Assembly (NCBI GenBank): GCA_013824715.1
Contig: PNOH01000039.1
Location: 1-42,118 of the forward strand
Direction of reading: 5' to 3'
DNA length: 42,118 bases
From: Odoribacter sp.
GTDB lineage: Bacteria; Bacteroidota; Bacteroidia; Bacteroidales; Prolixibacteraceae
How positions within the stretch are numbered: the first letter of the stretch is position 1; the number at the start of each line of letters is the position of its first letter. Under the pieces are notes generated by a model, which saw only the letters and a list, made by a program, of their open reading frames with translations, was not told the origin of the DNA and searched no databases. The position numbers and the translations under genes were made by a program. Below are positions 6,629-38,506 of this stretch, one piece after another.

Positions 6629-7936
6629 ATGAAAGATATCATCAAGTCGTTAATTTTAGGGCTTCAAAATAGGCTGCCCATGCCGGTAATCAACCGTAAT
6701 CTTTCATTACCACTGGCTTCAGAAAAAATTATTACTGTAACTGGAGTCAGGCGCTGCGGCAAATCGTATATGCTTTTTGATACCATGAATAGGTTATTGA
6801 TGGAAGGAGTAACTAAAGACCGGATTCTTTTTATCAATTTTGATGATGAACGCCTGCAATTTACGCCTCAAAACCTGGATTTAATTCTGCAAGCATACCG
6901 GGAGCTTTACCCATCTGTTAATATGGCTGAAGTTTATTTCTTTTTTGATGAAATGCAGATGGCTGAGGGTTGGGAATCATTTGTGCGACGCGTTTATGAT
7001 ACTGAAAGCCGAAACATCTTTCTTTCCGGTTCAAATGCGAAATTACTTGCTTCCGAAATAGCAACTTCGCTTCGGGGTCGAACTTTACAATTCGAAGCAT
7101 TTCCGTTGAGCTTCGATGAATATGGCCGTTTTACAAAATTAGAATCCAATTGGTTTATGCCCGAAAATAGGGCGAATATTGAAAATGGGTTTATGCAATT
7201 CCTAACTAAAGGTGGATTCCCGGAATTGGTTTTGTCTGATTACCGCTTTTTTGAAGGAGCTGCACAGGAGTATTATCATGTCATGTTGTATAAAGACCTG
7301 ATTGAACGGTACGAGATTAAGAATATCCCTGTACTAAAATACCTTGTGTCAAGACTGCTCGTTAATCTGGGAAAACCCACATCCATCAATAAAATATACA
7401 ACGAGTTACGCTCGGCAGGACTGAAGGCTGACAAAAACATGCTTTATACAATTACCGATCATTTACAATCCATTTATTTCATCCAACGTGTTGGTAAATA
7501 CGACCTTTCGTTACTAAAAACAGAATTGGCAAATGAAAGAAAGACCTACTTTATTGACAATAGTTTTCTTACGGCACTGAGTTACAGTTTGAGTACCGAT
7601 TATGGCCGGTTACTTGAAAATATTGTTTTTCTGTGGCTTCGGACTAAATTTCCTTTTGGACGGGGCCTGTATTTTGCAAAAGGTAAAAAAGAGTGTGACT
7701 TTATACTGATCGACCGCGAAAAACCGTCAATTTTGATACAGGTAAGCTGGAAAATTGACCAGACTGAAACTTTACGTCGTGAGATAGATGGTTTGGTTGA
7801 ATTGGGCAACTACTTTAAATGCGATAATTTGATGATAGTTACAGCTTCAGATGATCGTGAACTGGAAGCCTCCGGGTTTCGGATTAAAGTGGTTCCCGCC
7901 TGGAAATTAATGCTGGAAAATAGTCCGATCATCTAA
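6629..7936 (+). CDS. AAA ATPase of the DUF4143 type
   Basis: 435 residues. The N-terminal half is a P-loop ATPase: Walker A GVRRCGKS at residues 39-46, Walker B VYFFFDE at 102-108, and a sensor-like IFLSGSNAKLL stretch followed by SLRGR. A winged-helix-like part follows, with SINKIYNELRSAGLKADKNML. The C-terminal DUF4143 part (from about residue 335, LENIVFLWLRTKF) has a PD-(D/E)xK-like trace: an E in LENIVF, ECDFIL, then ILIQVSW. These ATPases occur in many copies in Bacteroidota genomes and their role is unclear. It is distinct in sequence from the second ATPase at 34337-35677. The 5' leader is AT-rich and the start is the first ATG of the frame. Confidence 0.85.
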   Translation: MKDIIKSLILGLQNRLPMPVINRNLSLPLASEKIITVTGVRRCGKSYMLFDTMNRLLMEGVTKDRILFINFDDERLQFTPQNLDLILQAYRELYPSVNMAEVYFFFDEMQMAEGWESFVRRVYDTESRNIFLSGSNAKLLASEIATSLRGRTLQFEAFPLSFDEYGRFTKLESNWFMPENRANIENGFMQFLTKGGFPELVLSDYRFFEGAAQEYYHVMLYKDLIERYEIKNIPVLKYLVSRLLVNLGKPTSINKIYNELRSAGLKADKNMLYTITDHLQSIYFIQRVGKYDLSLLKTELANERKTYFIDNSFLTALSYSLSTDYGRLLENIVFLWLRTKFPFGRGLYFAKGKKECDFILIDREKPSILIQVSWKIDQTETLRREIDGLVELGNYFKCDNLMIVTASDDRELEASGFRIKVVPAWKLMLENSPII

Positions 7937-25528: not shown

Positions 25529-25769
25529 GATTTGGCTGGTATGAGATTATTCAATAAAGATAAAAATCTTTACTCAAAATATCTGCAGCAACCGGATTTT
25601 AAGGCGAAATCAGTGAAACAGGAAAAATGACAGGTAACGCAAAGTTCACAAGGAAATCAGGTATCCGATTGAAAAATTGAATATTGAATTCGATTATTTA
25701 GATATGAATACCAGCTAAAAGTTAAATACCCTACCTGAAAAAATACTAATATTTTTAACCATCCGAATT

Positions 25770-26849
25770 TCAATTCGGATAATTGAGCGGTTCAACTTCG
25801 CCGGTAGCCACCCTTAAAGCATTCATGGCAAGCGCCTCCAGTTCATCTTCGCCCGGATAAATATGTACAGCAGAGATAAACTCCACTTTTTTACTGATGT
25901 ATTGTGTCAGATACTGATTGTAAGCCAGTCCTCCCGTAAGTAAAATAGCATCAACTTTTCCATTCAGTGCAACTGCCATCTCGCCGATTGATTTGGCAAC
26001 CTGATAGCCTAATGCATCCTGAACTTTCCGGGCCAGGGTATCTCCACTTTTTGATCGGGTTTCAACATCCAGGGCATCATTGGTACCCAGATAAGCCACA
26101 TAGCCACCTTCGCCAATGACCATGCGCCGGATTTCGTCTTTCTCGTATTTATTACTGAAACAAAGCTCAATTAGCTGGCCAACAGGCAAAGTTCCACTTC
26201 GTTCGGGACTAAAAGGGCCTTCGCCATCCAATGCGTTGTTTACATCAATAACCCGGCCATTCAGGTGTGCCCCAACCGATATTCCTCCGCCGAGGTGAGC
26301 CACAATCAGGCTTAGTGTTTCATAGCTGCGTCCGATTTTTCGGGCATGAAGCCGTGCAGTCGCTTTCTGATTAAGGGCATGAAAGATAGAACGGCGCTCA
26401 AATGCAGGATGTCCTGAAAACCGGGCAATGTCATCCAACTCGTCAACCACAACCGGATCGGCCACATAGGCATGGGCTCCGGGTATCTGAAGGGCAATGT
26501 AATCGGCAATGAGTGGGCCGAGGTTACTGGCATGTTGACCATAAATGCCCGCCCGTGCATGTTCCAGCATCCGGTTATTTACCAGATAAACTCCTGATTT
26601 TAAGGGATAAGTCAATCCACCCCGGCCAATGATGTATTTTATTTTATCCACATCAAAACCTTCTTCAACCAAAGCATCAATAATCAGCCCCTTCCTGAAT
26701 TCAAACTGATCGATGATGTTTTCGTAAAGCGATAATTCTTCAATGGAATGGCGTAAAGTTTTCTTCAGCTTACACACTCCTTCAAAGTAAACTGCAAACT
26801 TGGTTGAAGTGGAACCTGGATTGATCGCCAATATTCGGATTTCGCTCAT
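25770..26849 (-). CDS. buk: Butyrate kinase
   Basis: 359 residues. It transfers phosphate between butyryl-phosphate and ADP to form butyrate and ATP in fermentation, or works in reverse. The N-terminus RILAINPGSTSTKFAVY and the middle IVAHLGGGISVGAHLNGRVIDV (read in order) are the family signatures. Length and the HALNQKATAR segment fit butyrate or branched-chain acid kinase rather than acetate kinase, which is present separately at 27953. It follows ptb after 9 bases, forming a ptb-buk operon. Confidence 0.93.
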   Translation of the reverse strand: MSEIRILAINPGSTSTKFAVYFEGVCKLKKTLRHSIEELSLYENIIDQFEFRKGLIIDALVEEGFDVDKIKYIIGRGGLTYPLKSGVYLVNNRMLEHARAGIYGQHASNLGPLIADYIALQIPGAHAYVADPVVVDELDDIARFSGHPAFERRSIFHALNQKATARLHARKIGRSYETLSLIVAHLGGGISVGAHLNGRVIDVNNALDGEGPFSPERSGTLPVGQLIELCFSNKYEKDEIRRMVIGEGGYVAYLGTNDALDVETRSKSGDTLARKVQDALGYQVAKSIGEMAVALNGKVDAILLTGGLAYNQYLTQYISKKVEFISAVHIYPGEDELEALAMNALRVATGEVEPLNYPN

Positions 26850-26858
26850 GAATCAGTT

Positions 26859-27764
26859 TTATTTATTTAACAACGCAGCAAGCGCAATTGAGTTCAGTTT
26901 TGTTCGGATACTGTCGCCCCTGGATGATAAAACAATGGGCACATTGGCTCCCATAACCACTGCAGCCTGTTCAGCATGACACAATTTGGCGTTCATCTTA
27001 TAGAATACATTACCCGCATCAATGTTTGGGAACAGCAAACAATCGGCATCGCCGGCAACTTCAGAGGTGATATTTTTTATTTGAGCCGATTCCTTATCAA
27101 GCGCCACATCAAGAGCAATGGGCCCAAAAACCACGGCAGGTTCAAATTGTCCGTTTTCTGCGGCTTTCATTACTTCAACCGCATCAGAGCACGAAACCAA
27201 AGATAACAAAACCTGTTCAGTTGGGGTAATCAGGGCAATTTTTGGCTTGGAAATTCCCAGATCAAGAGCCATTTTCTTTAAATAATGGGTCATGGCTATT
27301 TTCTGCGGAACAGTGGGATAAGGAATAATCGCCACATCACTTACGATCAGTAGCTTGTGATAATTCGGATTGTCGACCACTGTGACGTGACTTAATACCC
27401 CGCCCACAGGCAACAATCCAGCCTCTTTGTTCAGAATGGCCCTCATGAATTTATCGCTGCTGATTAATCCTTTCATCAGGATACATCCTGATGTTTTTAC
27501 CACTAATTGTACAGCCAGGCGGGCAGCTTCCTCATCAGTTCCGGCCTGAATGATATGAAATAAGCTATCATCAATCTGATGAGCTGCACATTGCTTTATG
27601 ATTTCATCACGATTACCAGTAACAACAGCCGATACAATTCCCATTGTCACAGCTTCAGCAATTGCTTCCAGGCTGTGACCATCAACAGCATTAACAGCCA
27701 CGAGGGTTCTTCTTTCTGCTGAACGGATGTATTCAAATAAATCGCCAAGTCTCTCCAGTTTCAT
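26859..27764 (-). CDS. ptb: Phosphate butyryltransferase
   Basis: 301 residues of the phosphate acetyl/butyryltransferase family. It converts butyryl-CoA and phosphate to butyryl-phosphate and CoA. The family pattern is visible in ILMKGLISSDKFMRAILNKEAGL (in order), GGVLSHVTVVDNPNYHKLLIVSDVAIIPYPT and the C-terminal PNIDAGNVFYKMNAKLCHAEQAAVVMGANVPIVLSSRGDS. The length fits Ptb rather than the longer Pta. It precedes buk by 9 bases. Upstream lies an inverted repeat TGGTAA-AA-TTACCA at 27783-27796, 19 bases before the start, which could be an operator. Confidence 0.92.
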   Translation of the reverse strand: MKLERLGDLFEYIRSAERRTLVAVNAVDGHSLEAIAEAVTMGIVSAVVTGNRDEIIKQCAAHQIDDSLFHIIQAGTDEEAARLAVQLVVKTSGCILMKGLISSDKFMRAILNKEAGLLPVGGVLSHVTVVDNPNYHKLLIVSDVAIIPYPTVPQKIAMTHYLKKMALDLGISKPKIALITPTEQVLLSLVSCSDAVEVMKAAENGQFEPAVVFGPIALDVALDKESAQIKNITSEVAGDADCLLFPNIDAGNVFYKMNAKLCHAEQAAVVMGANVPIVLSSRGDSIRTKLNSIALAALLNK

Positions 27765-27782
27765 TTCCTGTATTTTTTATGT

Positions 27783-27796
27783 TGGTAAAATTACCA
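27783..27796. promoter_or_regulatory. Small inverted repeat in the ptb leader
   Basis: TGGTAA and TTACCA flank two A residues 19 bases upstream of the ptb start codon. It may be an operator. No regulator gene is nearby, so this rests on symmetry alone. Confidence 0.25.
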
Positions 27797-27854
27797 CTTC
27801 GCAACCGATAAATACATAACAAACATCAACATCCAAAATGTTTTTAAACCGTTG

Positions 27855-27893
27855 AAAAACAAAACGTCCGATGTTCTTTAACACCAGACGTTT
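27855..27893 (-). terminator. Terminator after ackA
   Basis: On the minus strand, AAACGTC and GACGTTT form the outer stem with further pairing inside (GGTGTT with AACATC). A T-rich run TTTTGTTTTTC follows. It lies about 60 bases past the ackA stop and separates the pta-hbd-ackA unit from the ptb-buk unit. Confidence 0.75.
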
Positions 27894-27952
27894 CAATATG
27901 GTCACGAAAAAAGCAACTTGCTTTTAGTTTAAAGGGACAGAACAAATTCTAC

Positions 27953-29161
27953 TTACGATTTATTTTGGCTTATTACAATCTCTTCGGTATCCAATGCAAT
28001 CATTAATTCTTCTTCAGTTGGAACAACCATGATTTTAACTCTGGAGTCAGGTGTACTGATCATTCCTTCGCTTCGGAATCTTTTGTTTTTCTCATAATCC
28101 AATGAAATTCCCATAAAATCAAGCTCGCCGCAAATACCTTCACGGGTAGCACCTGCATTTTCACCAATTCCCCCGGTCAAAATCAGGATATCTAGCCCTC
28201 CCATAGCGGCAATGTAGGAGCCGATGTATTTTTTTACTTTGTAATTATATACATCGAGAGCCAATTTAGCCCTTTCGTTTCCGCTTGCTTTGGCCATTTC
28301 TATTTCGCGCATATCCGACGAAACACCTGAAATGCCCAACATTCCAGCATGTTTATTAAACAAAGTGCTGGCCGACCGAATTCCTATTTCTTCTTTTTCC
28401 ATGATGTAATAAACCACGCCAACGTCAAGGTCGCCACAACGGGTTCCCATCACTAAACCTTCAATGGGAGTGAATCCCATAGAGGTATCAAATGATTTTC
28501 CGTTTTTAATGGCAGCAACCGAAGCGCCATTACCCAAATGGCATGAAATAATTTTTTGGGTATGTAAATCAACCCCAAGCAAATCGCATGCACGTTTGCT
28601 TACATAACGATGACTGGTTCCGTGAAAGCCATAACGGCGAATGCCATATTTTTTATATAAGGCATACGGAATTCCATACATGTATGCTTTGGGTTCCATC
28701 GTTTGATGAAAAGCTGTATCGAAAACACCGACTTGCTGAATGCCGGGAACTAATTCTTCTATAGCCCTGATTCCCTTCAAATTCGGCGGATTATGAAGTG
28801 GTGCGATATCATTACACTTGGTGATTTCCTGCAAAATTTCTTCAGTTAATAAGGCACTCGCATTAAAATGTTCGCCTCCGTGAACAACCCGGTGACCTAC
28901 GGCATCAATTTCATCGAGCCCCTTGATACAGCCATGTTTTTCACTGGTTAGTATTCCCAAAATGAATTCTACGCCAATTTTATGATCCAGTATTTCACCT
29001 TCGAAAACAACAACCTGCCCATCCTGACGGACATGCTTGAGAAAACTTCCTTTCATCCCCAGCTTTTCAACGCCACCTTTGGCAACCACTGATCGGTCAA
29101 CCATGTTGAAAAGCTGATATTTGATGGAACTGCTTCCACAATTTAATACAAGAATCTTCAT
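27953..29161 (-). CDS. ackA: Acetate kinase
   Basis: 402 residues. It makes ATP from acetyl-phosphate, releasing acetate, and is reversible. Signatures are MKILVLNCGSSSIKYQLF at the N-terminus, VGHRVVHGGEHF (about residues 84-95), the catalytic-loop Arg in RRYGFHGTSHRYVS, HLGNGASVAAIKNG, and GFTPIEGLVMGTRCGD. The late ILTGGIGENAG is the nucleotide site. It is the last gene of the pta-hbd-ackA run, 33 bases after hbd. Confidence 0.97.
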   Translation of the reverse strand: MKILVLNCGSSSIKYQLFNMVDRSVVAKGGVEKLGMKGSFLKHVRQDGQVVVFEGEILDHKIGVEFILGILTSEKHGCIKGLDEIDAVGHRVVHGGEHFNASALLTEEILQEITKCNDIAPLHNPPNLKGIRAIEELVPGIQQVGVFDTAFHQTMEPKAYMYGIPYALYKKYGIRRYGFHGTSHRYVSKRACDLLGVDLHTQKIISCHLGNGASVAAIKNGKSFDTSMGFTPIEGLVMGTRCGDLDVGVVYYIMEKEEIGIRSASTLFNKHAGMLGISGVSSDMREIEMAKASGNERAKLALDVYNYKVKKYIGSYIAAMGGLDILILTGGIGENAGATREGICGELDFMGISLDYEKNKRFRSEGMISTPDSRVKIMVVPTEEELMIALDTEEIVISQNKS

Positions 29162-29194
29162 TCTATTACCTTTTTTTTGATGCTTAGTTGGAAA

Positions 29195-30169
29195 TCAGCA
29201 ACGTTGATTATTCAGTTGAACTATTTTTTTTCCATTCTCATCATATTTATAAAATCCTTCACCCGACTCCATTCCAAGATGTTTGGCACGAACCAGTTTA
29301 CGGAGGAAAGGATTCGGTTTGTACCGGATGTCGCCAAACTCATTGTAAATATTGTCCATCCAACGAAGAATTTTATCGAGACCCATCTTATCAGCTAATT
29401 CGAATGGGCCAAGACGCATACCAAATCCGATTTTCATGGTCTGATCAATATCATCGATATTTGAAATTCCCTCCATTAAAATTTCACACGCTTCATTCAG
29501 GAGTACCACATAAATCCGGACACTTACCAAACCTGCCGATTCCTGCACAGGTACAATTTTTCGATTGATAAGCGTGACAAACTTGCATACTTTCTGGTAC
29601 GATTCATCAGTAGTATATAAACCTCTGACCACTTCTACGATGCGGGCTTCCTGTGAATTGATAAAAAAGTGTAAACTGACACAACGGTCACGATACTGCA
29701 AATCCGAAGAAAGTTCGGTGATAACAATGGTGGTTGAGTGAGTGGCTATGATACATTCAGGTTCAACTACCGCCTCAATTTTGTGCAAAATTTCTTTTCT
29801 TTCCTTAATTTTTCCACCACGGTCAACAGCTCGTATGGCTTCAATAACGAAATCACACCCTACAAGATCCTGATAATCAAGCGAGCCCTTTATCCTGGAT
29901 AAAATAGCACGTTTTTCACCCTGAGTAATACCCCAATGTTCAATCCGTTCATCCAATACTTTTTCGATGTTTTTATAGGCTTCAATAATTTTGTCGTCAG
30001 AAACTTCAATAAAAACAACTTCTATTCCGTAAAAACTGGCCACACGGGCAATATTCTGACCGACCAGGCCACAACCAATTACTCCAATTTTGGAAAACAG
30101 TGTTCGGCTAACATTCTTTTTACTTAACCCAAACTCTTCAATTGGTTCATAAATCACTTCGCTCGGCAT
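29195..30169 (-). CDS. 3-hydroxyacyl-CoA dehydrogenase-like protein with altered Asn site
   Basis: 324 residues of the 3-hydroxybutyryl-CoA dehydrogenase family, which oxidises or reduces 3-hydroxyacyl-CoA with NAD(P). The Rossmann motif GVIGCGLVGQNIA (residues 29-41) follows an N-terminal extension of about 25 residues. The catalytic His is H167 in SLHFF and its Glu partner E179 in IVEVV. Where the family usually has VNRI, this protein reads SVRI (residues 216-219), so the active-site Asn is replaced by V217. The end, ESGEGFYKYDENGK, is typical. It sits between pta and ackA with gaps of 21 and 33 bases, unusual for that pair. It may serve butyryl-CoA formation for ptb-buk, or have another substrate. 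Confidence 0.85.
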   Translation of the reverse strand: MPSEVIYEPIEEFGLSKKNVSRTLFSKIGVIGCGLVGQNIARVASFYGIEVVFIEVSDDKIIEAYKNIEKVLDERIEHWGITQGEKRAILSRIKGSLDYQDLVGCDFVIEAIRAVDRGGKIKERKEILHKIEAVVEPECIIATHSTTIVITELSSDLQYRDRCVSLHFFINSQEARIVEVVRGLYTTDESYQKVCKFVTLINRKIVPVQESAGLVSVRIYVVLLNEACEILMEGISNIDDIDQTMKIGFGMRLGPFELADKMGLDKILRWMDNIYNEFGDIRYKPNPFLRKLVRAKHLGMESGEGFYKYDENGKKIVQLNNQRC

Positions 30170-30190
30170 ATCTGTTTATATTGAATTTGA

Positions 30191-31195
30191 TTAATCGAAA
30201 AGCGCCGCGGCCTGATTGGCTGTAATGGCTACCATATTGACGATATCGCTCACCGAACAGCCCCTCGAAAGGTCGTTGATCGGAGCAGCCATGCCCTGAA
30301 GAACCGGACCCACTGCTTCAGCTTTTGCCAGTCGTTGTACAAGTTTGTACCCAATATTAGCAGATTCAAGTCCCGGAAAAACCAGGATATTTGCACGACC
30401 GGCTACTTCGCTGTTTGGCGCTTTCAATCGTCCAACTTCAGGAATTAAAGCCGCATCGAGTTGTAATTCACCATCAATTTTTAATTCCGGATCCATTTCA
30501 CGGGCAATACGGGTGGCGTTCACCACTTTATCAACCAAAGGATGCTGAGCGCTGCCCATGGTCGAGAAACTCAACATGGCAACACGCGGATCCATGCCCA
30601 CAATGGCTTTGGCAGTTCTTGCTGTAGTAACAGCGATTTCGGCCAACTGGCGCTCATCCGGATCGGGCATTACTGCACAATCGGCAAAGACCAGAATCCC
30701 ATCATGACCAAAATGCGGATCGTTCACAAACATCAGGAACGCTCCTGAAACGACACTCACACCAGGTAAAGTTTTGATATATTGGAAAGCCGGCCGAAGT
30801 ACATCACTGGTTGAATTAATGGCCCCGGCGAGTTCCCCGTCAGCATCACCGTTTTTAATCATCAGTGGGGCAAAAAACAGCGGATCGTTCAACAATTCGA
30901 GCGCTGCCTCATGGGTAAGACCTTTTTCTTTACGGATTTCTACCATCAACCCGGCATACTTTTCACGTCTCGGATCAGTTTTAGGATCAACAATGGTAAC
31001 TCCTTCAATAGTAACTCCAAGTTCTTCAGCAGCCTGATTAATTTCCTCCGGTTGACCCAGAAGAATGATCTGAGCCAGCTTTTGATTCAATATTATTTCT
31101 GTTGCCCGCAGGGTTCTGGGTTCCGTTCCCTCAGGTAAAACAATCCTTTTTTGGTATTTTTGGGCATTCTGATAGACGCGTTTTAGAATTTCCAT
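30191..31195 (-). CDS. pta: Phosphate acetyltransferase
   Basis: 334 residues from the ATG at 31195 (MEILKRVYQNAQKYQKRIVL). An in-frame ATG 45 bases further upstream is less typical. It interconverts acetyl-CoA and acetyl-phosphate. Features are RIVLPEGTEPRTLRA at the N-terminus, DGELAGAINSTSDVLRPA (about residues 132-149), VFADCAVMPDPDERQLAEIA (in order), and the C-terminal NILVFPGLESANIGYKLVQRL. This is the short, catalytic-only Pta type. It is the first gene of the pta-hbd-ackA operon and is divergent from the large oxidoreductase at 31407. Confidence 0.95.
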   Translation of the reverse strand: MEILKRVYQNAQKYQKRIVLPEGTEPRTLRATEIILNQKLAQIILLGQPEEINQAAEELGVTIEGVTIVDPKTDPRREKYAGLMVEIRKEKGLTHEAALELLNDPLFFAPLMIKNGDADGELAGAINSTSDVLRPAFQYIKTLPGVSVVSGAFLMFVNDPHFGHDGILVFADCAVMPDPDERQLAEIAVTTARTAKAIVGMDPRVAMLSFSTMGSAQHPLVDKVVNATRIAREMDPELKIDGELQLDAALIPEVGRLKAPNSEVAGRANILVFPGLESANIGYKLVQRLAKAEAVGPVLQGMAAPINDLSRGCSVSDIVNMVAITANQAAALFD

Positions 31196-31406
31196 CGTTG
31201 GTTTAAAGTTTAAACTATCAGGTAAAATGTTCGACAGCAAAAGTACTTAAAATATGAGGAGCTTGTCAATATCCTGAGAAAAATATACTGAAAACTGACA
31301 AAATTCATTATTCCCAAATAGAATGAAAACAAGTATTTATTTTGAGAACAAATGATTGACAAACTTCATGTGAATTAAATTTACTTATTTTTGAAAAACT
31401 TCAACC

Positions 31407-34343
31407 ATGAAACCTTCCGATCCCTTTTTCCCGCTCAAACAATCGCTCGATGGCGATGTATTTACCGATCAGGTGCAGAAAGTGATTTATGCCACTGATG
31501 CATCGTCGTACCGCGAAATTCCCCAGGCAGTTACACGCCCGAAGAACAAGGAAGACATCCGAAAAATCATCGGCTTTGCCCGTCAAATGGGAACTTCTGT
31601 GATTCCACGTGCCGGGGGAACTTCGCTTGCCGGCCAGGTGGTAGGTCCGGGAATTGTGGTTGACATTTCGAAATACCTGAATAAAATTGGCGAATTAAAT
31701 ATTGAAAACAATTGGATTGAAGTAGAACCAGGCGTTGTGCTTGCCGAACTCAACCAGTTTCTTTCGAAGCATGGTGTACAGTTTGCCCCTGAAACCTCTA
31801 CCGCAAACCGTTGCTGCATCGGAGGAATGCTTGGAAATAATTCGTGTGGACTGCATTCGCTGATTTATGGCAGCTTTCGGGAACATATTCTGGAAGTGGA
31901 AGGTATTCTGTCTGACGGATCAGATGTGACTTTCGGAGCGCTTACAATTGAGGAATTTCAGGCCAAATGCTCGGATAATCCTGAACTTCTGGAAACCCAA
32001 GTCTATCGGAATATTCAGGAAACACTGGCCAATGAATTTAATCAGCAGGAAATCCGAAATGAGTTTCCCGATCCGAAAGTGACCCGCCGGAACAATGGAT
32101 ATGCACTGGATATGCTGCTCGAAACCGATCCGTTTACAGGCAATGGAGAATCGTTTAATTTCTGCAAACTGCTGGCCGGATCGGAAGGAACACTGGTATT
32201 TATCACTAAAATGAGGCTGAAAATTGTTCCACTTCCACCCCAGTTTCAGGGATTGGTTTGTGCGCATTTTAATTCGCTGGAAGATGCTTTCTATGGAAAT
32301 ATTGTTGCGTTGAAGCATAAGCCGGATGCGATTGAATTAACCGATGATATTACCCTGAACTGCACACTCGAAAACATTGAACAACGCAAAAACCGCTTTT
32401 TCATTGAAGGAAATCCTAAAGCAATTCTGACCATTGAGTTCTCGGCAGATTCAGAAAAGGAAATTCAGGAGAAAGCCGGTAAGTTAGAAGAAAGCTTAAG
32501 AAAAGAAGGCTACGGTTACCATTTTCCGCTATTCACTGATAAGGAAAGCATCCGCAAAATCTGGGAACTTCGGAAGGCCGGACTGGGCTTGCTTTCGAAT
32601 ATTCCGGGCGACAAACGCAATGTGACCGTGATTGAGGATACAGCCGTTGCACCTGATTATTTGCCCGCTTACATCCGCGAGTTCGACCAGATTATTGCCA
32701 GATATGATTTAACTTGCGTGTATTACGGTCACATTGCCACCGGCGAGTTACACCTTCGTCCGCTCCTGAATTTGAAAGATCCGGAAGATGTAAAAATCTA
32801 TCATTCGCTGGCAAAAGAAGTTGCCGAACTGGTTAAAAAATTCCGTGGTTCGCTAAGCGGCGAGCATGGCGACGGTCGTTTGCGCGGTGAATTTATCCCG
32901 CTGATGCTTGGCCAGCACAATTACGAATTGATCCGCAAACTGAAATACACCTGGGATCCTCAAAACATACTGAACCCGGGGAAAATTGTGGATACGCCTC
33001 CAATTACCAAAGATTTGCGCTTAATGATGGGGCAACCATCATTCAAAGCAAATACCATGTTTGATTATGCGCCGCACGGTGATTTACTGCGCTCTGTCGA
33101 AATGTGTAACGGGTCGGGGGACTGCCGCAAAAGCAACCTGATTGGCGGAACGATGTGCCCATCGTACATGGCAACTGGCGACGAGGATAAAACGACCCGC
33201 GCCCGTGCCAATGTGCTGCGCGAATACCTGACCCGGCCACAAAAAGCGAATGTTTTCGATTCGGAGGAAGTGATGCAGGTACTTGATTTGTGCCTTTCGT
33301 GCAAAGCCTGCAAATCGGAGTGTCCGTCGAATATAGACATGGCCAAATTTAAAACCGAATTTTTGCAGCAATACTACGATCAGCATGGTTTCCCTTTGCG
33401 TTCGTTGCTGATTGCTTACTTGCCACGGATCAACCGTTTGGGCATGGTATTCGTGCCAATCACCAACTGGATTACCAATACCAGCATATTTAAAAGAATC
33501 ATCGGTTTTGCTCCCGAAAGGAAAATACCCGAACTATCGAAACTAAGTCTGAGAAAATGGTATCGTAAACCTATTTCATTAAGCAGCAACAAAATTGGAA
33601 AAGTATATTTGTTTGCCGATGAGTTTACCAATTTCAATGAAAGCCACATCGGAATTAAAGCCATTTTGCTGCTGAATAAACTGGGTTACGAAGTGATAAT
33701 TCCGAAACATCTGGAAAGTGGACGGACTTACCTATCGAAAGGATTGCTGCGCAAAGCCAAAGAAATTGCCAACTTCAATGTTGAACGACTCTCCAAAATC
33801 GTTTCGGACGAAACTCCGCTGATCGGAATTGAACCTTCAGCTATTCTCACTTTCAGGGATGAATATCCGGAACTGGTTGATTCTGAACTTCAGGAAAAAG
33901 CAAGGACTTTGGCAAAAAACGCACTTTTGCTGGAAGAATTTTTGGTTCAGGAAATTGACAAAGGAAACATCCGGAGCAAACAGTTTTGTGCAGAAGCGAA
34001 AGTCATCAAACTTCACGGACATTGTCAGCAAAAAGCGGTAGCTTCTACCCTACCCACCCGAAAAATACTTGAATTGCCAGCCAATTATACCGTTCAGGAA
34101 ATAAAAAGCGGGTGCTGCGGAATGGCCGGTTCGTTCGGATACGAAAAAGAACATTACGAATTGAGTATGCAAATCGGCGAGCTTGATTTATTTCCTGCTG
34201 TGCGAAAAGCCACATCAGAAGAAATTATTGTTGCTCCCGGAACTTCGTGCCGCCACCACATTGAGGATGGAACGGGCCGAAAAGCGCTGCACCCGGTCGA
34301 GGTTTTGTGGGAGGCGGCGTTGAAATTGCACTGGATTTACTGA
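31407..34343 (+). CDS. FAD-linked oxidase / Fe-S fusion 2-hydroxyacid dehydrogenase (YdiJ/GlpC-like)
   Basis: 978 residues. N-terminal FAD-binding domain (about residues 20-225), with AGGTSLAGQVVG and ANRCCIGGMLGNNSCG. FAD-oxidase C-terminal domain (about residues 245-530), with GHIATGELHLRPLLN and SGEHGDGRLRGEF. Ferredoxin-like domain with two Cys clusters: CNGSGDCRKSNLIGGTMCP near residue 567 and CLSCKACKSECP near residue 628. CCG heterodisulfide-reductase-like domain at about 830-945, with HGHCQQKA and SGCCGMAGSFGYEKEHYE. Such fusions oxidise 2-hydroxyacids (D-lactate, glycolate, 2-hydroxyglutarate) and pass electrons to quinone or another carrier. The exact substrate is not clear. The last four residues (HWIY) are replaced relative to the diverged 3' copy at 35821-36038, and the stop overlaps the convergent ATPase gene by 7 bases. 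Confidence 0.93.
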   Translation: MKPSDPFFPLKQSLDGDVFTDQVQKVIYATDASSYREIPQAVTRPKNKEDIRKIIGFARQMGTSVIPRAGGTSLAGQVVGPGIVVDISKYLNKIGELNIENNWIEVEPGVVLAELNQFLSKHGVQFAPETSTANRCCIGGMLGNNSCGLHSLIYGSFREHILEVEGILSDGSDVTFGALTIEEFQAKCSDNPELLETQVYRNIQETLANEFNQQEIRNEFPDPKVTRRNNGYALDMLLETDPFTGNGESFNFCKLLAGSEGTLVFITKMRLKIVPLPPQFQGLVCAHFNSLEDAFYGNIVALKHKPDAIELTDDITLNCTLENIEQRKNRFFIEGNPKAILTIEFSADSEKEIQEKAGKLEESLRKEGYGYHFPLFTDKESIRKIWELRKAGLGLLSNIPGDKRNVTVIEDTAVAPDYLPAYIREFDQIIARYDLTCVYYGHIATGELHLRPLLNLKDPEDVKIYHSLAKEVAELVKKFRGSLSGEHGDGRLRGEFIPLMLGQHNYELIRKLKYTWDPQNILNPGKIVDTPPITKDLRLMMGQPSFKANTMFDYAPHGDLLRSVEMCNGSGDCRKSNLIGGTMCPSYMATGDEDKTTRARANVLREYLTRPQKANVFDSEEVMQVLDLCLSCKACKSECPSNIDMAKFKTEFLQQYYDQHGFPLRSLLIAYLPRINRLGMVFVPITNWITNTSIFKRIIGFAPERKIPELSKLSLRKWYRKPISLSSNKIGKVYLFADEFTNFNESHIGIKAILLLNKLGYEVIIPKHLESGRTYLSKGLLRKAKEIANFNVERLSKIVSDETPLIGIEPSAILTFRDEYPELVDSELQEKARTLAKNALLLEEFLVQEIDKGNIRSKQFCAEAKVIKLHGHCQQKAVASTLPTRKILELPANYTVQEIKSGCCGMAGSFGYEKEHYELSMQIGELDLFPAVRKATSEEIIVAPGTSCRHHIEDGTGRKALHPVEVLWEAALKLHWIY
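34111..34326 (+). repeat. Direct repeat, copy A: 3' end of the FAD/Fe-S oxidoreductase gene
   Basis: This 216-base segment aligns without gaps to 35821-36036. I counted 36 mismatches by hand, about 83% identity, most at third codon positions. It starts within the GCCG motif and ends four codons before the stop. Downstream of it the two sequences are unrelated. Confidence 0.9.
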
Positions 34344-35677
34344 TCACATCTTTCAATGATCTGGTTTAATTGTGAAACCAGATAATACGGTACATTAAGC
34401 AACCTGAATTTTTTACCAGTGGCTGTTTGAATTTCGGATTCAGAAAATGGTTGGTTCCAGATTCTGATAGCCAGTTGGTGTGGAGCCTGATCCATAAAGA
34501 GATGAAGAGATTTCAACGTACTTCCAACACCCGATTTTACTTCAACCGGAATCAAGCGGCCAGCGTTTGAAAGCAAATAATCTAACTCTGCATTTGAGTT
34601 TTTAGCTTCACGCACCCAGAAAGATCGTTGGGTTAAAACGCTGTAATCTTCTGCAATCAACTCTTGCCCAACAATGTGTTCGGCTACAAGGCCACGCCAA
34701 ACAGAACTCAGTTCTTTTGCACCAAAAACTTCGTATTGAACTCCTACTGCGTAATTCATCAAACCGGTATCGAGCCAGTGAAGCCGGGGAGATTTTTTAT
34801 AATCTGGCAGAAATGGCACACTCGACGAACCCGTTGGGTAAACCATTTCAATTAGCATGGTTTTTTCGAGTATCCGGAAAGCTTCCGATATCTCACGCGA
34901 ACGATAATCTGATTCGCCAAAGCGTTCAAATTTGATACGTTGGCAACTATACCTGAAACCTGTGCGCAGGATATGCCTGATATGCTGCACAGAACTGTTT
35001 TTTATTGCGTATTTTTCAACATCGTCAATATACCCGGCAATCAGCGATTGATATTCAGAATTTAGGCCTACCAAGTCTTTGTTGCTGGCATAATTGGCCA
35101 CAATGGCCGGCATACCACCAATCAATGTATAACGGTTAAAAAGAGATTGTAGCTTTTCATGAGCATATTGAGGAATGGGCCATTTCGACAAAATATCAGA
35201 CGATGCCTGTTCTCTGGTCGCTGTTAAGAATTCGTTGAACGAACATGGCCTCACAGCCAGATATTCGACCCGGCCTACCGGGAATGAAATGTGCCTGTCA
35301 ATGACCGATTCTAACAGTGAACCTGCTGCAATCACATAAATTTCAGGCGCATCTTCGTAGAAATAACGAAGCAAGGCAACTGCCTGCGGCGAGTTTTGAA
35401 TCTCGTCAATAAAAATTAGCGTATTTTTCCCTCCTTTTTTTTCCCCTTTCAGAAAAAAAATAGCATCGAGCTTCTCACTAAACGAAGCCGGCGATTCAAA
35501 AACAGCCTTTTCTTCTGCTTTTTCTAAATTCAGGTAAATATAACAAGCGTATTTTTTTGCAAAAAAATTCACCAATGTTGTCTTTCCAACCTGACGGGCA
35601 CCGCGTAATACCAAGGGCTTTCTGTTATCCTTGAGCGACCATTCTTCGAGTTTGTCAATTATCTTTCTGTAAAACAT
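34337..35677 (-). CDS. AAA ATPase with DUF4143-type C-terminal domain
   Basis: 446 residues. Walker A GARQVGKTT lies at residues 26-34 and Walker B TLIFIDEIQ at about 86-94 (D91, E92). A sensor-like VIAAGSLLES follows. The C-terminal domain (from about residue 320, SSVWRGLVAEHIVGQEL) has PD-(D/E)xK-like features: an E before VGQE, AELDYLL and LIPVEVKSG. It belongs to the AAA_14/DUF4143 group, of uncertain function, found in many copies in Bacteroidota. It differs from the ATPase at 6629. It is convergent with the oxidoreductase, overlapping its stop codon, and is flanked by the two copies of that gene's 3' end. Three TCACAAA words precede its start. Confidence 0.88.
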   Translation of the reverse strand: MFYRKIIDKLEEWSLKDNRKPLVLRGARQVGKTTLVNFFAKKYACYIYLNLEKAEEKAVFESPASFSEKLDAIFFLKGEKKGGKNTLIFIDEIQNSPQAVALLRYFYEDAPEIYVIAAGSLLESVIDRHISFPVGRVEYLAVRPCSFNEFLTATREQASSDILSKWPIPQYAHEKLQSLFNRYTLIGGMPAIVANYASNKDLVGLNSEYQSLIAGYIDDVEKYAIKNSSVQHIRHILRTGFRYSCQRIKFERFGESDYRSREISEAFRILEKTMLIEMVYPTGSSSVPFLPDYKKSPRLHWLDTGLMNYAVGVQYEVFGAKELSSVWRGLVAEHIVGQELIAEDYSVLTQRSFWVREAKNSNAELDYLLSNAGRLIPVEVKSGVGSTLKSLHLFMDQAPHQLAIRIWNQPFSESEIQTATGKKFRLLNVPYYLVSQLNQIIERCDQ

Positions 35678-35696
35678 AGCATTAGTATAATAAATG

Positions 35697-35736
35697 TCAC
35701 AAATCCAATCACAAATCTACTGAATATTGTCACAAA
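35697..35736. promoter_or_regulatory. Three TCACAAA words upstream of the AAA ATPase gene
   Basis: TCACAAA occurs at 35697-35703, 35709-35715 and 35730-35736, reading TTTGTGA toward the minus-strand ATPase gene that starts at 35677. Starts are 12 and 21 bases apart. They could be regulator sites, but no partner is visible. Confidence 0.3.
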
Positions 35737-35820
35737 AATAACCATATAAATTACTAATGATGTATTAAAACCAATCATAAGTGAATTATTAACATTCTAA
35801 TTCAGATCACATTTATTACG

Positions 35821-36038
35821 GATGCCGCGGAATGGCCGGATCGTTTGGTTACGAAAACGAACACTACGAATTAAGCATGCAAATCGGTGAACTGGATTTA
35901 TTTCCTGCAGTAAGGAAATCCTCTTCCGAAGAAATAATTGTTGCTCCGGGAACGTCGTGCCGCCATCACATTGAAGACGGAACAGGACGAAAAGCGCTGC
36001 ACCCGGTAAAGGTGCTGTGGGATGCAGTATTGAAATGA
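35821..36038 (+). pseudogene. Diverged 3' remnant of the FAD/Fe-S oxidoreductase gene (repeat copy B)
   Basis: The frame encodes the last about 70 residues of the oxidoreductase: GMAGSFGYENEHYELSMQIG, then EIIVAPGTSCRHHIEDGTGRK and HPVKVLWDAVLK before a TGA. The Cys motif reads GCRG instead of GCCG. Homology begins abruptly at 35821 and upstream sequence is AT-rich and unrelated. The protein level is highly conserved against copy A while many codons differ silently, so it was under selection until recently. It is either the displaced original end of the gene or what is left of a second copy. No own start region is evident. Confidence 0.85.
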
Positions 36039-36183
36039 CCAAATTATTTGTTTACAAGACAATTTGCAAAGGCCATTTTTATTCCTGAAATGAACCCACT
36101 TACAATGTTCAAATGACCTTAATATCTTGTATATTTACCAATTATATTCGAGTCCGATTTCTAACCTTTAAAATTTACCTCAC

Positions 36184-37080
36184 ATGTTTATTATCTTTTT
36201 TGGAATTGCAGTTATCATAATTGGTTTTGTAATTGCAAATAACGAATCGCCTGCCAGGCCATATAGCGCCATGATCAGAATTATCGGATTTCTAATTGTT
36301 CTGGTAGGTGCAGGTTTATCCTCTGTTAAACAAATTGAACCCGGTGATGTCGGAGTTCAGAAACTCTTCGGAAAAGTAAACAAAAATGTTCTTGAAAGCG
36401 GATTGAATGTAATTAACCCGCTGGTTGAAGTAGTAACTTTTGATGTGCGCACACAGAATTATACCATGTCGGGTGTGCACGATGAAGGCCAAAAAGCCGG
36501 GGACGATGCCATTCGGGTATTGTCAGCCGACGGACTAGAAGTAATCATCGACCTTACTGTTCTCTATAAGGTTATTCCTAACGAAGCCCCGCGCATATTA
36601 AGCGAAATCGGGACCGATTACCGGAATGTAATTGTTCGTCCGATCTGCCGGACAAAAATTCGGGACAATGCGGTCTATTATGATGCAATCGCATTGTATT
36701 CAACCAAGCGTGACGAATTTCAGGCCCGCATTTTTAAAACGATCGAAAGTGATTTTACCGGCAGGGGATTAATACTTGAACAACTGCTGGTTCGTAATAT
36801 AACCCTTCCGGAATCCGTAAAAGCTACGATCGAATCAAAAATCAACGCTGAACAGGAAGCTCAGAAAATGACTTTCGTGCTCCAGAAAGAAACACAGGAG
36901 GCCGAACGTAAACGGGTGGAAGCTCAGGGCATAGCCGATTACCAGAAGATTTTAAGTACCGGACTTAGCGATAAGCTACTGCAATACGAAATGATCAAAG
37001 CTATTGCCACCTCGCCCAATGCCAAGCTCATTATCATGGACAGCAAAAAAGGCAGTCCGATTATTGTGGATGGCAAATAG
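36184..37080 (+). CDS. Prohibitin-like SPFH domain protein
   Basis: 298 residues. Two N-terminal hydrophobic segments (MFIIFFGIAVIIIGFVIA and MIRIIGFLIVLVGAGL) anchor it in the inner membrane. The SPFH/prohibitin domain follows, with IEPGDVGVQKLFGKVNKNVLESGLNVINPL in order, then LTVLYKVIPNEAPRI and IVRPICRTKIRDNA. A helical region has the prohibitin pattern LPESVKATIESKINAEQEAQKM, ending in EAERKRVEAQGIADYQ. Bacterial prohibitins form membrane rings that regulate proteases such as FtsH. It appears to be a single-gene unit ending at the terminator 37130-37180. FloA at 19055 is a second, distantly related SPFH-type scaffold. Confidence 0.9.
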   Translation: MFIIFFGIAVIIIGFVIANNESPARPYSAMIRIIGFLIVLVGAGLSSVKQIEPGDVGVQKLFGKVNKNVLESGLNVINPLVEVVTFDVRTQNYTMSGVHDEGQKAGDDAIRVLSADGLEVIIDLTVLYKVIPNEAPRILSEIGTDYRNVIVRPICRTKIRDNAVYYDAIALYSTKRDEFQARIFKTIESDFTGRGLILEQLLVRNITLPESVKATIESKINAEQEAQKMTFVLQKETQEAERKRVEAQGIADYQKILSTGLSDKLLQYEMIKAIATSPNAKLIIMDSKKGSPIIVDGK

Positions 37081-37185: not shown

Positions 37186-38436
37186 TTACCGATGTCTGAT
37201 GTCGTAAACCATCAGCGCCTCGTTGTGCCTGATGTACAATTTTCCATCAACAATTACCGGATGCGCCCAGTGCTGTGCTGTTCCGAGCGGAACCTTAAAT
37301 TTGCTGATAATGCGGAATTCTTCAGGAGTACCTTCGGCCAAAGCCATTTCGCCATCCTTTTCGGCATAACAGTAGAAAAGTCCGTCGGCAGAAACCACCG
37401 CGCCGCCACCAAGCTCTTTGGCGATGTATTTGGTTAGCCCGGTTTTGACATCAATGCAAAACCATTTGGGTTGCAGGTAAGCTCCTCCATAGATGTAGCC
37501 GTCTTTCAAAATAATGCCGCCCGACAGGTTGATGAATTCCTTATTGCGCCAGGCAATTTCAGCCTTTTTCCCATCTGGTGATAGTTTCAGCGAAACCAGT
37601 CCCGAGCTGTCTTTACGCGAGGCGCTTGAAATAATCAGGTTTCCATCGAAATAAACCGGTGTGTTGGCATGTATCTTATTGTCCTGAAATTGATGTACCC
37701 GCCAGTACATTTCACCGGTAATGGCATCCAATCCAACAATGGAAGAGACGGTGAGATTGGCAATCAGCTTGTGCCCGTTGTGGTTGAACACGATCGGCGA
37801 GCAATAGGTAGCTTGTTCCTGATAGCCCGGGCTTGCCCATATTTTTTGCCCGGTGAACCGGTTCAGGGCAATCATGTTATTTTCTTTTCCTCCCGGTGTA
37901 CAATAGAGTTTGTCACCATCAATCAGGAGCGATTCAGAAAAACCAAACTGAACGGAGTCGGCTTTCATGTCTTTAAAGAAATCTACACTCCAAACGGTTT
38001 CGCCTGTTTCGGCTTTCATACAATATACAGCACCATTACCACTTTCCACATAAACCAGATCACCCGAAACTGTAGGCGTTGAGCGGGCCCCGGGAAAAAT
38101 ACCTGTCCAGTCTTTTCCGTAGTTCTTTTTCCAGAGCATCTTCCCTTTGGTATCGAAAGCAAAAAGATAGCCTTCCGAATTTAGGGTATCCGGAATTCCG
38201 GTTACAAATACTTTATCACCGGCTACCGCCACACTTCCCTGTCCTGTTCCGAGCCCTTCGAACGACCAAAGCAGTTTGGGGCCTTCGGCTGGCCACTGTT
38301 TCAACAAATTGCTTTCAGGAAAAATTCCATCACGGTTCGGGCCACGCCACTGCGACTGAGCTGTAGCTGTAGCTGTAGTAATACCTGAAGTTATCGCAAT
38401 CAGGATAACAAAGCAGACTAGATTCTTCAAATTCAT
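37186..38436 (-). CDS. Exported PQQ-like beta-propeller repeat protein
   Basis: 416 residues with a signal peptide (MNLKNLVCFVILIAITSG). Its end contains a Thr/Ala-rich stretch encoded by a CTGTAG hexamer repeated three times around 38360-38380. The mature part consists of propeller blades with the PQQ_2/BamB-like pattern: QWRGPNRDGIFPE, LLWSFEGLGTGQGSVAVAGDKVFVTG, LFAFDTKGKMLWKKNYG and similar WxxxxG repeats. Such proteins in Bacteroidota are often annotated as outer-membrane assembly factor-like or as PQQ enzymes. I see no catalytic signature, so a binding or scaffold role is more likely. It is followed upstream by the GH105-type gene on the same strand, 70 bases away. Confidence 0.85.
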   Translation of the reverse strand: MNLKNLVCFVILIAITSGITTATATAQSQWRGPNRDGIFPESNLLKQWPAEGPKLLWSFEGLGTGQGSVAVAGDKVFVTGIPDTLNSEGYLFAFDTKGKMLWKKNYGKDWTGIFPGARSTPTVSGDLVYVESGNGAVYCMKAETGETVWSVDFFKDMKADSVQFGFSESLLIDGDKLYCTPGGKENNMIALNRFTGQKIWASPGYQEQATYCSPIVFNHNGHKLIANLTVSSIVGLDAITGEMYWRVHQFQDNKIHANTPVYFDGNLIISSASRKDSSGLVSLKLSPDGKKAEIAWRNKEFINLSGGIILKDGYIYGGAYLQPKWFCIDVKTGLTKYIAKELGGGAVVSADGLFYCYAEKDGEMALAEGTPEEFRIISKFKVPLGTAQHWAHPVIVDGKLYIRHNEALMVYDIRHR

Positions 38437-38506
38437 TTTCTTCGGATTAAAAGATTTTATGGATGAGTACCACCAACATGCTTTTCATTACCAGCTATCT
38501 GTTCTG

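What the first reader, a model, noticed from the sequence alone, without database searches (positions are those of the whole stretch)
34111..36038. AAA ATPase gene bounded by two copies of its neighbour's 3' end
The FAD/Fe-S oxidoreductase ends at 34343 with the last 216 homologous bases at 34111-34326. The same 216 bases recur at 35821-36036 in the same orientation, 83% identical by my count, with the protein almost unchanged. Between them lies one convergent AAA/DUF4143 ATPase gene whose stop overlaps the oxidoreductase stop. This is the layout expected if a module entered at the gene's 3' end and restored it with a diverged tail carried by the incoming DNA, displacing the original end. The last residues of the current gene (HWIY) are new. 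No integrase is visible, so a homologous-recombination capture from a relative is an alternative. If real, this ATPase class could be part of a simple 3'-end-targeted mobile unit.
Basis: partly seen in the sequence, partly recalled or inferred. Interest (0 to 1): 0.75.

Follow-up and report, generated by a model that had tools for sequence, protein, structure and literature searches.

The report
Captured defence ATPase with own repeat array
A candidate phage-defence gene was spliced in at the end of a metabolic gene by recombination with a relative, and genes of its family carry a private array of three DNA repeats, 33 bases apart, that the protein itself probably recognises.

Summary
Positions 34109-34326 and 35819-36036 are direct copies of one gene end (83%), flanking a convergent AAA/DUF4143 ATPase. 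The congener G010 has the uninterrupted gene, joined to the DNA that here follows copy B. The copies differ almost only silently (dS 1.1, dN 0.04), so they diverged in two lineages and met by recombination. A same-genus genome (G014) has a doubled end of the same gene around a different cargo. Clear doubled neighbour genes were found at only 3 of 104 ATPase loci. Homologous capture is supported; a 3'-end-targeting mobile unit is not.

The larger result lies beside it. The ATPase belongs to candidate defence family PDC-S01 (E 4e-180). Its relatives carry three direct repeats of 33-bp period just before the start codon: 86 of 101 loci exceed all shuffles, against 3 of 378 unrelated control genes. 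What it shares with its closest homologs is array plus ORF only. One half of the repeat motif varies and follows two residues (359-360) in a loop of the C-terminal PD-(D/E)XK-like domain: rank 1 of 383 column pairs, but only moderate success on held-out loci. Likeliest meaning: the ATPase binds its own array. My searches found no report of this.

The parts
31407..34343 (+). FAD/Fe-S oxidoreductase (FAD_binding_4, FAD-oxidase_C, Fer4); its 3' end is the recombination site; it reads four residues (HWIY) into the cassette
33100..34326 (+). 3' third of the gene, 71-88% identical to G010 per 100 bp against about 91% upstream (25681-31308): probable imported tract, limits approximate (some earlier bins of the gene are also only 86-89%)
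34109..34326 (+). copy A of the 3' end (in the complete gene)
34337..35677 (-). AAA_14-DUF4143 ATPase, PADLOC PDC-S01; D366, E379 and K381 invariant in 42 homologs
34351..35778 (-). stretch of array+ATPase alignable to the closest homolog L087 (34353-35777 to L088)
34592..34606 (-). codons 358-362 (A K N S N), candidate recognition loop before D366
35696..35779 (-). array of three direct repeats with 33-bp period before the ATPase start (18-bp cores 35762-35779, 35729-35746, 35696-35713)
35819..36038 (+). copy B: truncated 3' end with stop at 36036-36038, joined to ancestral downstream DNA
36184..37080 (+). Band_7 gene that lies directly downstream of the uninterrupted oxidoreductase in G010

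Best explanation
A compact cassette (33-bp repeat array plus one PDC-S01 ATPase gene) was captured at the 3' end of the oxidoreductase gene by recombination with DNA of a related lineage. Homology inside the oxidoreductase served as the anchor, so the gene stayed whole but acquired a foreign 3' third (copy A). The other end of the incoming DNA was joined without homology inside a second oxidoreductase 3' end, leaving the truncated copy B beside the original downstream DNA. Shown: the doubled end, the empty version in G010, two-lineage silent divergence, and a comparable case with another cargo in the same genus. Inferred: order of events, donor, mechanism. The cassette's array is most likely a binding site of the ATPase itself, read through a loop next to the C-terminal PD-(D/E)XK-like site; three sites at 33-bp steps before the start codon would repress the gene until the ATPase is engaged. 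Shown: the array, its period, its near-restriction to this family, and the residue-motif covariation. Inferred: binding and autorepression.
For: Empty allele with downstream DNA 92% identical to that after copy B. A vs B dS 1.12, dN 0.044. G014 has the gene, a different 164-aa cargo and a second 143-bp tail (88.8%); G006 aligns without the interruption. Homology to L087/L088 spans array+ORF only. Array: mean 3-copy score 40.9 at period 33 vs 20.9-26.0 at all other periods 20-49; 86 of 101 loci exceed all 505 dinucleotide shuffles; 3 of 378 non-family control genes, 7 of 10 further family members. Fixed phase to the start codon in 61 of 86. Motif identity 0.81 within arrays, 0.54 between. Residues 359-360 rank 1 of 383 adjacent column pairs for the left half-motif at matched protein identity (0.214; mean 0.012, s.d. 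0.041); at 35-42% identity 0.74 (21 pairs) vs 0.40 (707 pairs), right half not affected. In 23 same-genus genomes a 16-mer array core occurs 24 times, 23 of them beside such an ATPase.
Against: Copy B is no closer to G010 than copy A is by much (83.8 vs 82.4%), so its status as resident tail rests on the flank. No donor found: of 129 ATPase loci held, only the window has the oxidoreductase next to the ATPase (L105 has a 48% relative about 9 kb away; 78 of the 110 loci have both flanks of 1.4 kb or more). No microhomology could be tested without a donor. Self-recognition: rules fixed before the held-out loci were seen scored 15 of 25 (permutation p 0.04) against 77 of 79 in training; K-G was right in 1 of 4; head-to-head 13 better, 6 worse, 7 ties; leave-one-out 20, 10, 4. 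Below 35% protein identity the two residues do not predict the motif (0.23 vs 0.19). The C/G motif classes changed only 3 times on the tree, so shared ancestry is part of the signal. 15 of 101 loci do not exceed the shuffles, some with mixed 32/33 spacing.
Confidence: 0.58

Rival explanations
1. Site-directed mobile unit: the array+ATPase cassette targets gene 3' ends and carries a replacement tail, as some integrative islands do.
For: Cassette boundaries are tight between distant loci. Direct repeats flank ATPases more often than other ORFs (11 of 64 vs 23 of 381, Fisher p 0.004). L095 and L096 also have a partial copy of a neighbour gene on the array side and another copy on the other.
Against: In L095 and L096 the doubled part is a 5' region. 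Most of the other flanking repeats look intergenic (by eye). No constant target-site repeat, no integrase in the unit. The doubled tail in G014 has a non-ATPase cargo.
Confidence: 0.12
2. Tandem duplication of the gene's 3' end within this genome, later split by the ATPase and decayed.
For: Same orientation, same gene; an 8-bp repeat GATCACAT (34342 and 35805) lies just inside both junctions.
Against: dS 1.1 with dN 0.04 between the copies means divergence under selection, not decay; G010, about 91% identical in the upstream flank, has one copy. Shared 8-mers are common in such windows (own 48%, mismatched 37.5%).
Confidence: 0.06
3. A larger segment (3' third of the gene, ATPase and copy B together) was imported in one homologous exchange from an unsampled relative in which the capture had already happened.
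For: Both copies differ from G010 by 16-18%; only the last stretch of copy B (bin from 34300 to the end, 96%) returns to G010-like identity.
Against: No such relative among the 22 other congeners searched for the ATPase; G010's own tail may be recombinant (its last 106 bp are 91.5% identical to G009 and G011).
Confidence: 0.3
4. The array is a promoter or RNA element read by a host factor, not by the ATPase.
For: Sequences like the Bacteroidota -7 element (TAnnTTTG; recalled, not tested) often lie in or near it; the right half-motif is nearly constant.
Against: Two ATPases in one genome carry different arrays (L096/L121, L087/L102); the left half follows residues 359-360 and the right half does not; the array is rare before other genes (3 of 378).
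Confidence: 0.25

Closest known systems
PDC-S01 (PADLOC phage-defence candidate; ATPase fused to a PD-(D/E)XK domain; PMC12988326, passages seen)
   Same: Whole-length profile match, E 3.6e-180; AAA_14 + DUF4143
   Different: That paper's main text has no hit for direct repeat, operator, promoter or autoregul; the 33-bp array and the loop-motif covariation are not mentioned in the passages seen
Homology-facilitated illegitimate recombination and displaced 3' ends in T6SS effector arrays and Rhs loci (PMC5361080, passages seen)
   Same: Anchor in a conserved gene, new cargo, old 3' end displaced downstream
   Different: Here the anchor gene is metabolic and kept whole, and the cargo is a convergent candidate defence ATPase
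Archaeal ATPases PABY2304 (2qen) and SSO1545 (2fna); then Orc1/Cdc6
   Same: Best Foldseek matches of the predicted model, E 3.8e-9 and 3.2e-7
   Different: TM-score over the query only 0.43-0.46; no nuclease structure among the 50 listed
Iteron arrays before replication initiators (recalled)
   Same: Phased direct repeats just upstream of an AAA+ ATPase gene
   Different: 33-bp period, mostly three copies, chromosomal single gene, no replication function known

Membership tests
PDC-S01 | whole-length profile match | tested here: met
   PDLC04788, residues 1-443 on profile 1-443 of 448, E 3.6e-180
PDC-S01 | protects cells from phage | not testable with these tools
AAA_14-DUF4143 ATPase | both Pfam domains above the gathering score | tested here: met
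   91.5 vs 27.0 and 60.6 vs 28.1 bits
PD-(D/E)XK nuclease | conserved D...ExK | tested here: met
   D366, E379, K381 invariant in 42 sequences; that this is the catalytic motif is from recalled knowledge
PD-(D/E)XK nuclease | match to a solved member | tested here: inconclusive
   only Cas4 4r5q at E 0.15 over profile 313-414; the 50 Foldseek rows listed are AAA+ proteins
integrative or transposable element | integrase or transposase in the unit | tested here: not met
   the unit is array plus one ATPase ORF
integrative or transposable element | constant target-site repeat or att site | tested here: not met
   9 of 104 loci (one, L129, a slicing artefact) share 11 bp or more across the unit, mismatched control 1.5%; lengths and places vary
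homology-facilitated illegitimate recombination | one homologous end, one non-homologous end | tested here: met
   gene continuous through copy A; copy B starts inside the gene
homology-facilitated illegitimate recombination | microhomology at the non-homologous end (recalled) | tested here: inconclusive
   no donor sequence found

The most novel reading that the evidence does not exclude
PDC-S01 ATPases are self-addressing units: the C-terminal PD-(D/E)XK-like domain reads the left half of its own 33-bp-phased array through residues 358-362, under a simple residue-to-base code. The array is both operator and processing site, so that a nicked or cut array makes the array+ATPase cassette recombine into new places, leaving partial neighbour copies on the array side, as in the window, L095 and L096. 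One of the commonest candidate defence genes of prokaryotes would then be a minimal, integrase-free mobile gene with its own address label.
Probability: 0.15. Interest if true: 0.88.

Novelty: new variant of a known kind. Interest (0 to 1): 0.6.

Why it matters
PDC-S01 is called the fourth most common defence system across prokaryotes, with validation pending for most such candidates (PMC12988326, passages). A private, sequence-predictable binding array gives a direct handle on it: which DNA it binds, how it is kept silent, which residues set specificity. The doubled gene end is a clean example of how such a gene can be captured at the end of a core gene without an integrase in the unit.

Tried and rejected
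Dedicated 3'-end targeting: 104 of 110 fetched ATPase loci (L057-L166; six had under 100 nt on one side) were scanned for flanking direct repeats. Coding neighbour copies were clear only in the window, L095 and L096; most other hits look intergenic (by eye). L127 is distant paralogs; L109 and L142 repeat the array itself. In the controlled count only 64 ATPases with 600 nt on both sides were used, so L096 was not among them.

Target-site duplication: the 8-bp GATCACAT at both junctions was tested against mismatched left/right windows and is not unusual.

Naming the resident copy by tail similarity: both copies and G010 are mutually about 83% identical, so this failed.

metG hotspot: array+ATPase lies downstream of metG in G012, G013 and G019, and terminator-like repeats recur there. 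I first took these as duplicated ends, but short terminator matches may be convergent, so they are not counted.

Fixed recognition rules: 15 of 25 on held-out loci against 77 of 79 in training. Of 74 held-out loci 73 gave a protein and 61 an array; 38 were kept as well phased and 23 dropped because the conserved right half did not place them; some dropped ones (the genus group with CCCTAAC repeats) were visibly misphased. In training 77 of 86 arrays were kept. The phase window 21-29 was chosen after seeing the distribution.

Literature (open-licence library only): DUF4143 1 paper, COG1373 7, PDC-S01 3, AAA_14/PF13635 571 hits of which the 30 listed are irrelevant, repeat/operator terms 0, guilt-by-embedding/PDC, STAND/MNS. 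No listing or passage I saw reports the array; I read no paper in full.

Full report
The observation. Two direct copies of 218 nt, 34109-34326 and 35819-36036, are 83% identical; no third place matches in the 4.6-Mb assembly. The first is the 3' end of a 978-aa FAD/Fe-S oxidoreductase (31407-34343), the second a truncated 3' end with its stop at 36036-36038. Between them lies one convergent ORF, 34337-35677 (-), with AAA_14 and DUF4143 domains. The complete gene ends HWIY; none of 18 same-genus relatives does.

The empty site. In G010, the congener most similar here, the oxidoreductase is followed by the Band_7 gene, and the DNA after its stop is 92% identical to the DNA after copy B. Window and G010 are 91.4% identical at 25681-31308, 90.9% at 35819-37079 and 88.1% at 37193-38506. 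Inside the gene, identity falls to 71-88% per 100 bp from about 33.1 kb to the cassette, though some earlier bins are also only 86-89%. Both tails are nearly equally far from G010 (A 82.4%, B 83.8%) and from each other (83.3%). G010's own last 106 bp are 91.5% identical to G009 and G011, so its tail may be recombinant too. The flank shows that the insertion is derived; the tails do not say which one is resident.

Origin of the two tails. Of 35 differences in 71 codons, 28 are synonymous and 28 are in third positions: dS 1.12, dN 0.044. They diverged as functional gene ends in different lineages. Duplication in place followed by decay is very unlikely.

The same gene end was used elsewhere. Among the 23 same-genus genomes (G000-G022, within the 61), partial second tails were found in three: the window's own, G014 and G002. 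In G014 the gene is followed by a 164-aa ORF of another kind and then a 143-bp second tail (88.8% identical; dS 0.38, dN 0.06), beyond which the sequence aligns to what follows the uninterrupted gene in G006. In G002 the full gene was not found (assembly 76% complete) and the fragment lies beside transposase- and recombinase-like ORFs (by eye). The process is therefore not tied to the ATPase.

Is the ATPase a mobile unit? Homology with its closest relatives, L087 and L088 (82% and 81% protein identity), covers only window 34351-35778 or so: the ORF plus about 100 bp upstream. Among five 53-55% identical congeners, pairs at different loci (L192 or L193 against L195 or L196) share from 81-82 nt upstream to 14-30 nt beyond the match end; other pairs also share a flank. 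So a compact cassette exists. Direct repeats flank 11 of 64 ATPases against 23 of 381 other ORFs in the same loci (Fisher p 0.004), mostly intergenic by eye. Clear coding copies are in L096 (5' part of an epimerase-like gene) and L095 (5' part of a WG-repeat-like gene; names by eye), both with the shorter piece on the array side, as in the window. No constant target-site repeat was seen. No donor with the oxidoreductase next to such an ATPase was found among 129 ATPase loci. Capture by recombination explains this better than a targeting enzyme. Displaced 3' ends after anchored illegitimate recombination are proposed for T6SS and Rhs loci (PMC5361080, passages), and transformation can create duplications (PMC3784515, abstract and outline).

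The array. The 100 bp upstream of the ATPase hold three direct repeats. In 101 family loci (of 110; duplicates and short upstreams dropped) the mean best three-copy score is 40.9 at period 33 and 20.9-26.0 at every other period from 20 to 49; 86 of 101 exceed the best of 505 dinucleotide shuffles. Among 388 control upstream regions, 7 of 10 that belong to further family members have it and 3 of 378 others do. The third copy keeps a narrow phase to the start codon in 61 of 86 loci, 23.5 expected. Similar 33-bp arrays stand before several more distant family members of the genus, though not all; of the 17 own-genome loci most score low at 33. The motif is 20 bp: a variable left half (CCCTCAC, CCCTGAC, CCGTCAT, GATTGGT and others) and a nearly constant right half, TTTnTTACAA. 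Copies agree at 0.81 within an array and 0.54 between arrays; spacers at 0.51. Two ATPases in one genome can have different arrays (L096/L121, L087/L102). The 16-mer TTGCCTTGACTTTTTG occurs 24 times in 23 same-genus genomes, 23 times upstream of such an ATPase; the exception is in G011. G020 has two array copies without an ATPase at the metG locus. The window's core GATTGGNTTTNTNACA has one match in its genome, in the array itself.

What reads it. The model (pLDDT 89.7) is closest in the PDB to the archaeal ATPases PABY2304 and SSO1545 and then to Orc1/Cdc6. D366, E379 and K381 are invariant in 42 sequences, and PDC-S01 is described as ATPase plus PD-(D/E)XK (PMC12988326, passages). The columns most informative about motif class are 358, 360 and 362, a loop just before D366. 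KE goes with CAC, KQ with GAC or TAC, TD/AD with CAA, AE/NE with CAT, KN mostly with TTGG. In a scan of 383 adjacent column pairs at matched protein identity, 359-360 ranks first (0.214; mean 0.012, s.d. 0.041). At 35-42% identity, pairs with the same residues share 0.74 of the left half (21 pairs) vs 0.40 (707 pairs), while the right half is alike (0.68 vs 0.72); below 35% there is no effect (0.23 vs 0.19). That scan pools training and held-out loci.

Limits of that claim. Rules noted before the new loci were seen scored 77 of 79 in training, as expected, and 15 of 25 in 38 well-phased held-out loci (permutation p 0.04). Same-loop partners predicted the held-out motif better than the nearest other protein in 13, worse in 6, tied in 7; leave-one-out in training gave 20, 10 and 4. 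The class changed only three times on the tree. The covariation is partly shared ancestry; binding has not been shown.

Verdict. The new point is a phased repeat array, nearly restricted to this family among the genes tested and probably read by the ATPase itself, in one of the most widespread candidate defence families. After checking against the calls I lowered the main confidence from 0.60 to 0.58 and interest from 0.62 to 0.60, because the lack of effect below 35% identity and the low scores of most own-genome paralogs had been left out.

Noticed in passing
window 7292-7750 (+), and 15 further places in the genome: A second DUF4143 ATPase in the window; 17 DUF4143 matches in the genome in all, 15 over the cut-off.
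   Followed up: partly
L225-L246 (metG 3' flank in 22 same-genus genomes): The DNA after the metG terminator differs between many of the genomes (toxin-like, ABC transporter, PDC-S01 and other genes; about nine share a backbone), with terminator-like repeats between cargoes: an insertion hotspot.
   Followed up: partly
L233 around 1743: Two array copies without an ATPase downstream of metG in G020: a remnant or solo array.
   Followed up: partly
L004, L005 (own genome): Other DUF4143 ATPases have upstream repeats of period 32; L005 scores 54 of 54 with palindrome-like units.
   Followed up: no
L109 3443-3597, L142 3494-3550: The array (in L109 with upstream flank) recurs downstream of the ATPase, in the same orientation.
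   Followed up: no
L051 4563-4696: Oxidoreductase tail fragment in G002 beside a transposase-like ORF and three tyrosine-recombinase-like ORFs (named by eye, not searched).
   Followed up: no
phage records MT835779 16573-17901; plasmid NZ_CP085933 144505-145845: Relatives at 50-51% identity on one human-gut phage record and one Segatella copri plasmid; in all 12 phage and 83 plasmid records match.
   Followed up: no
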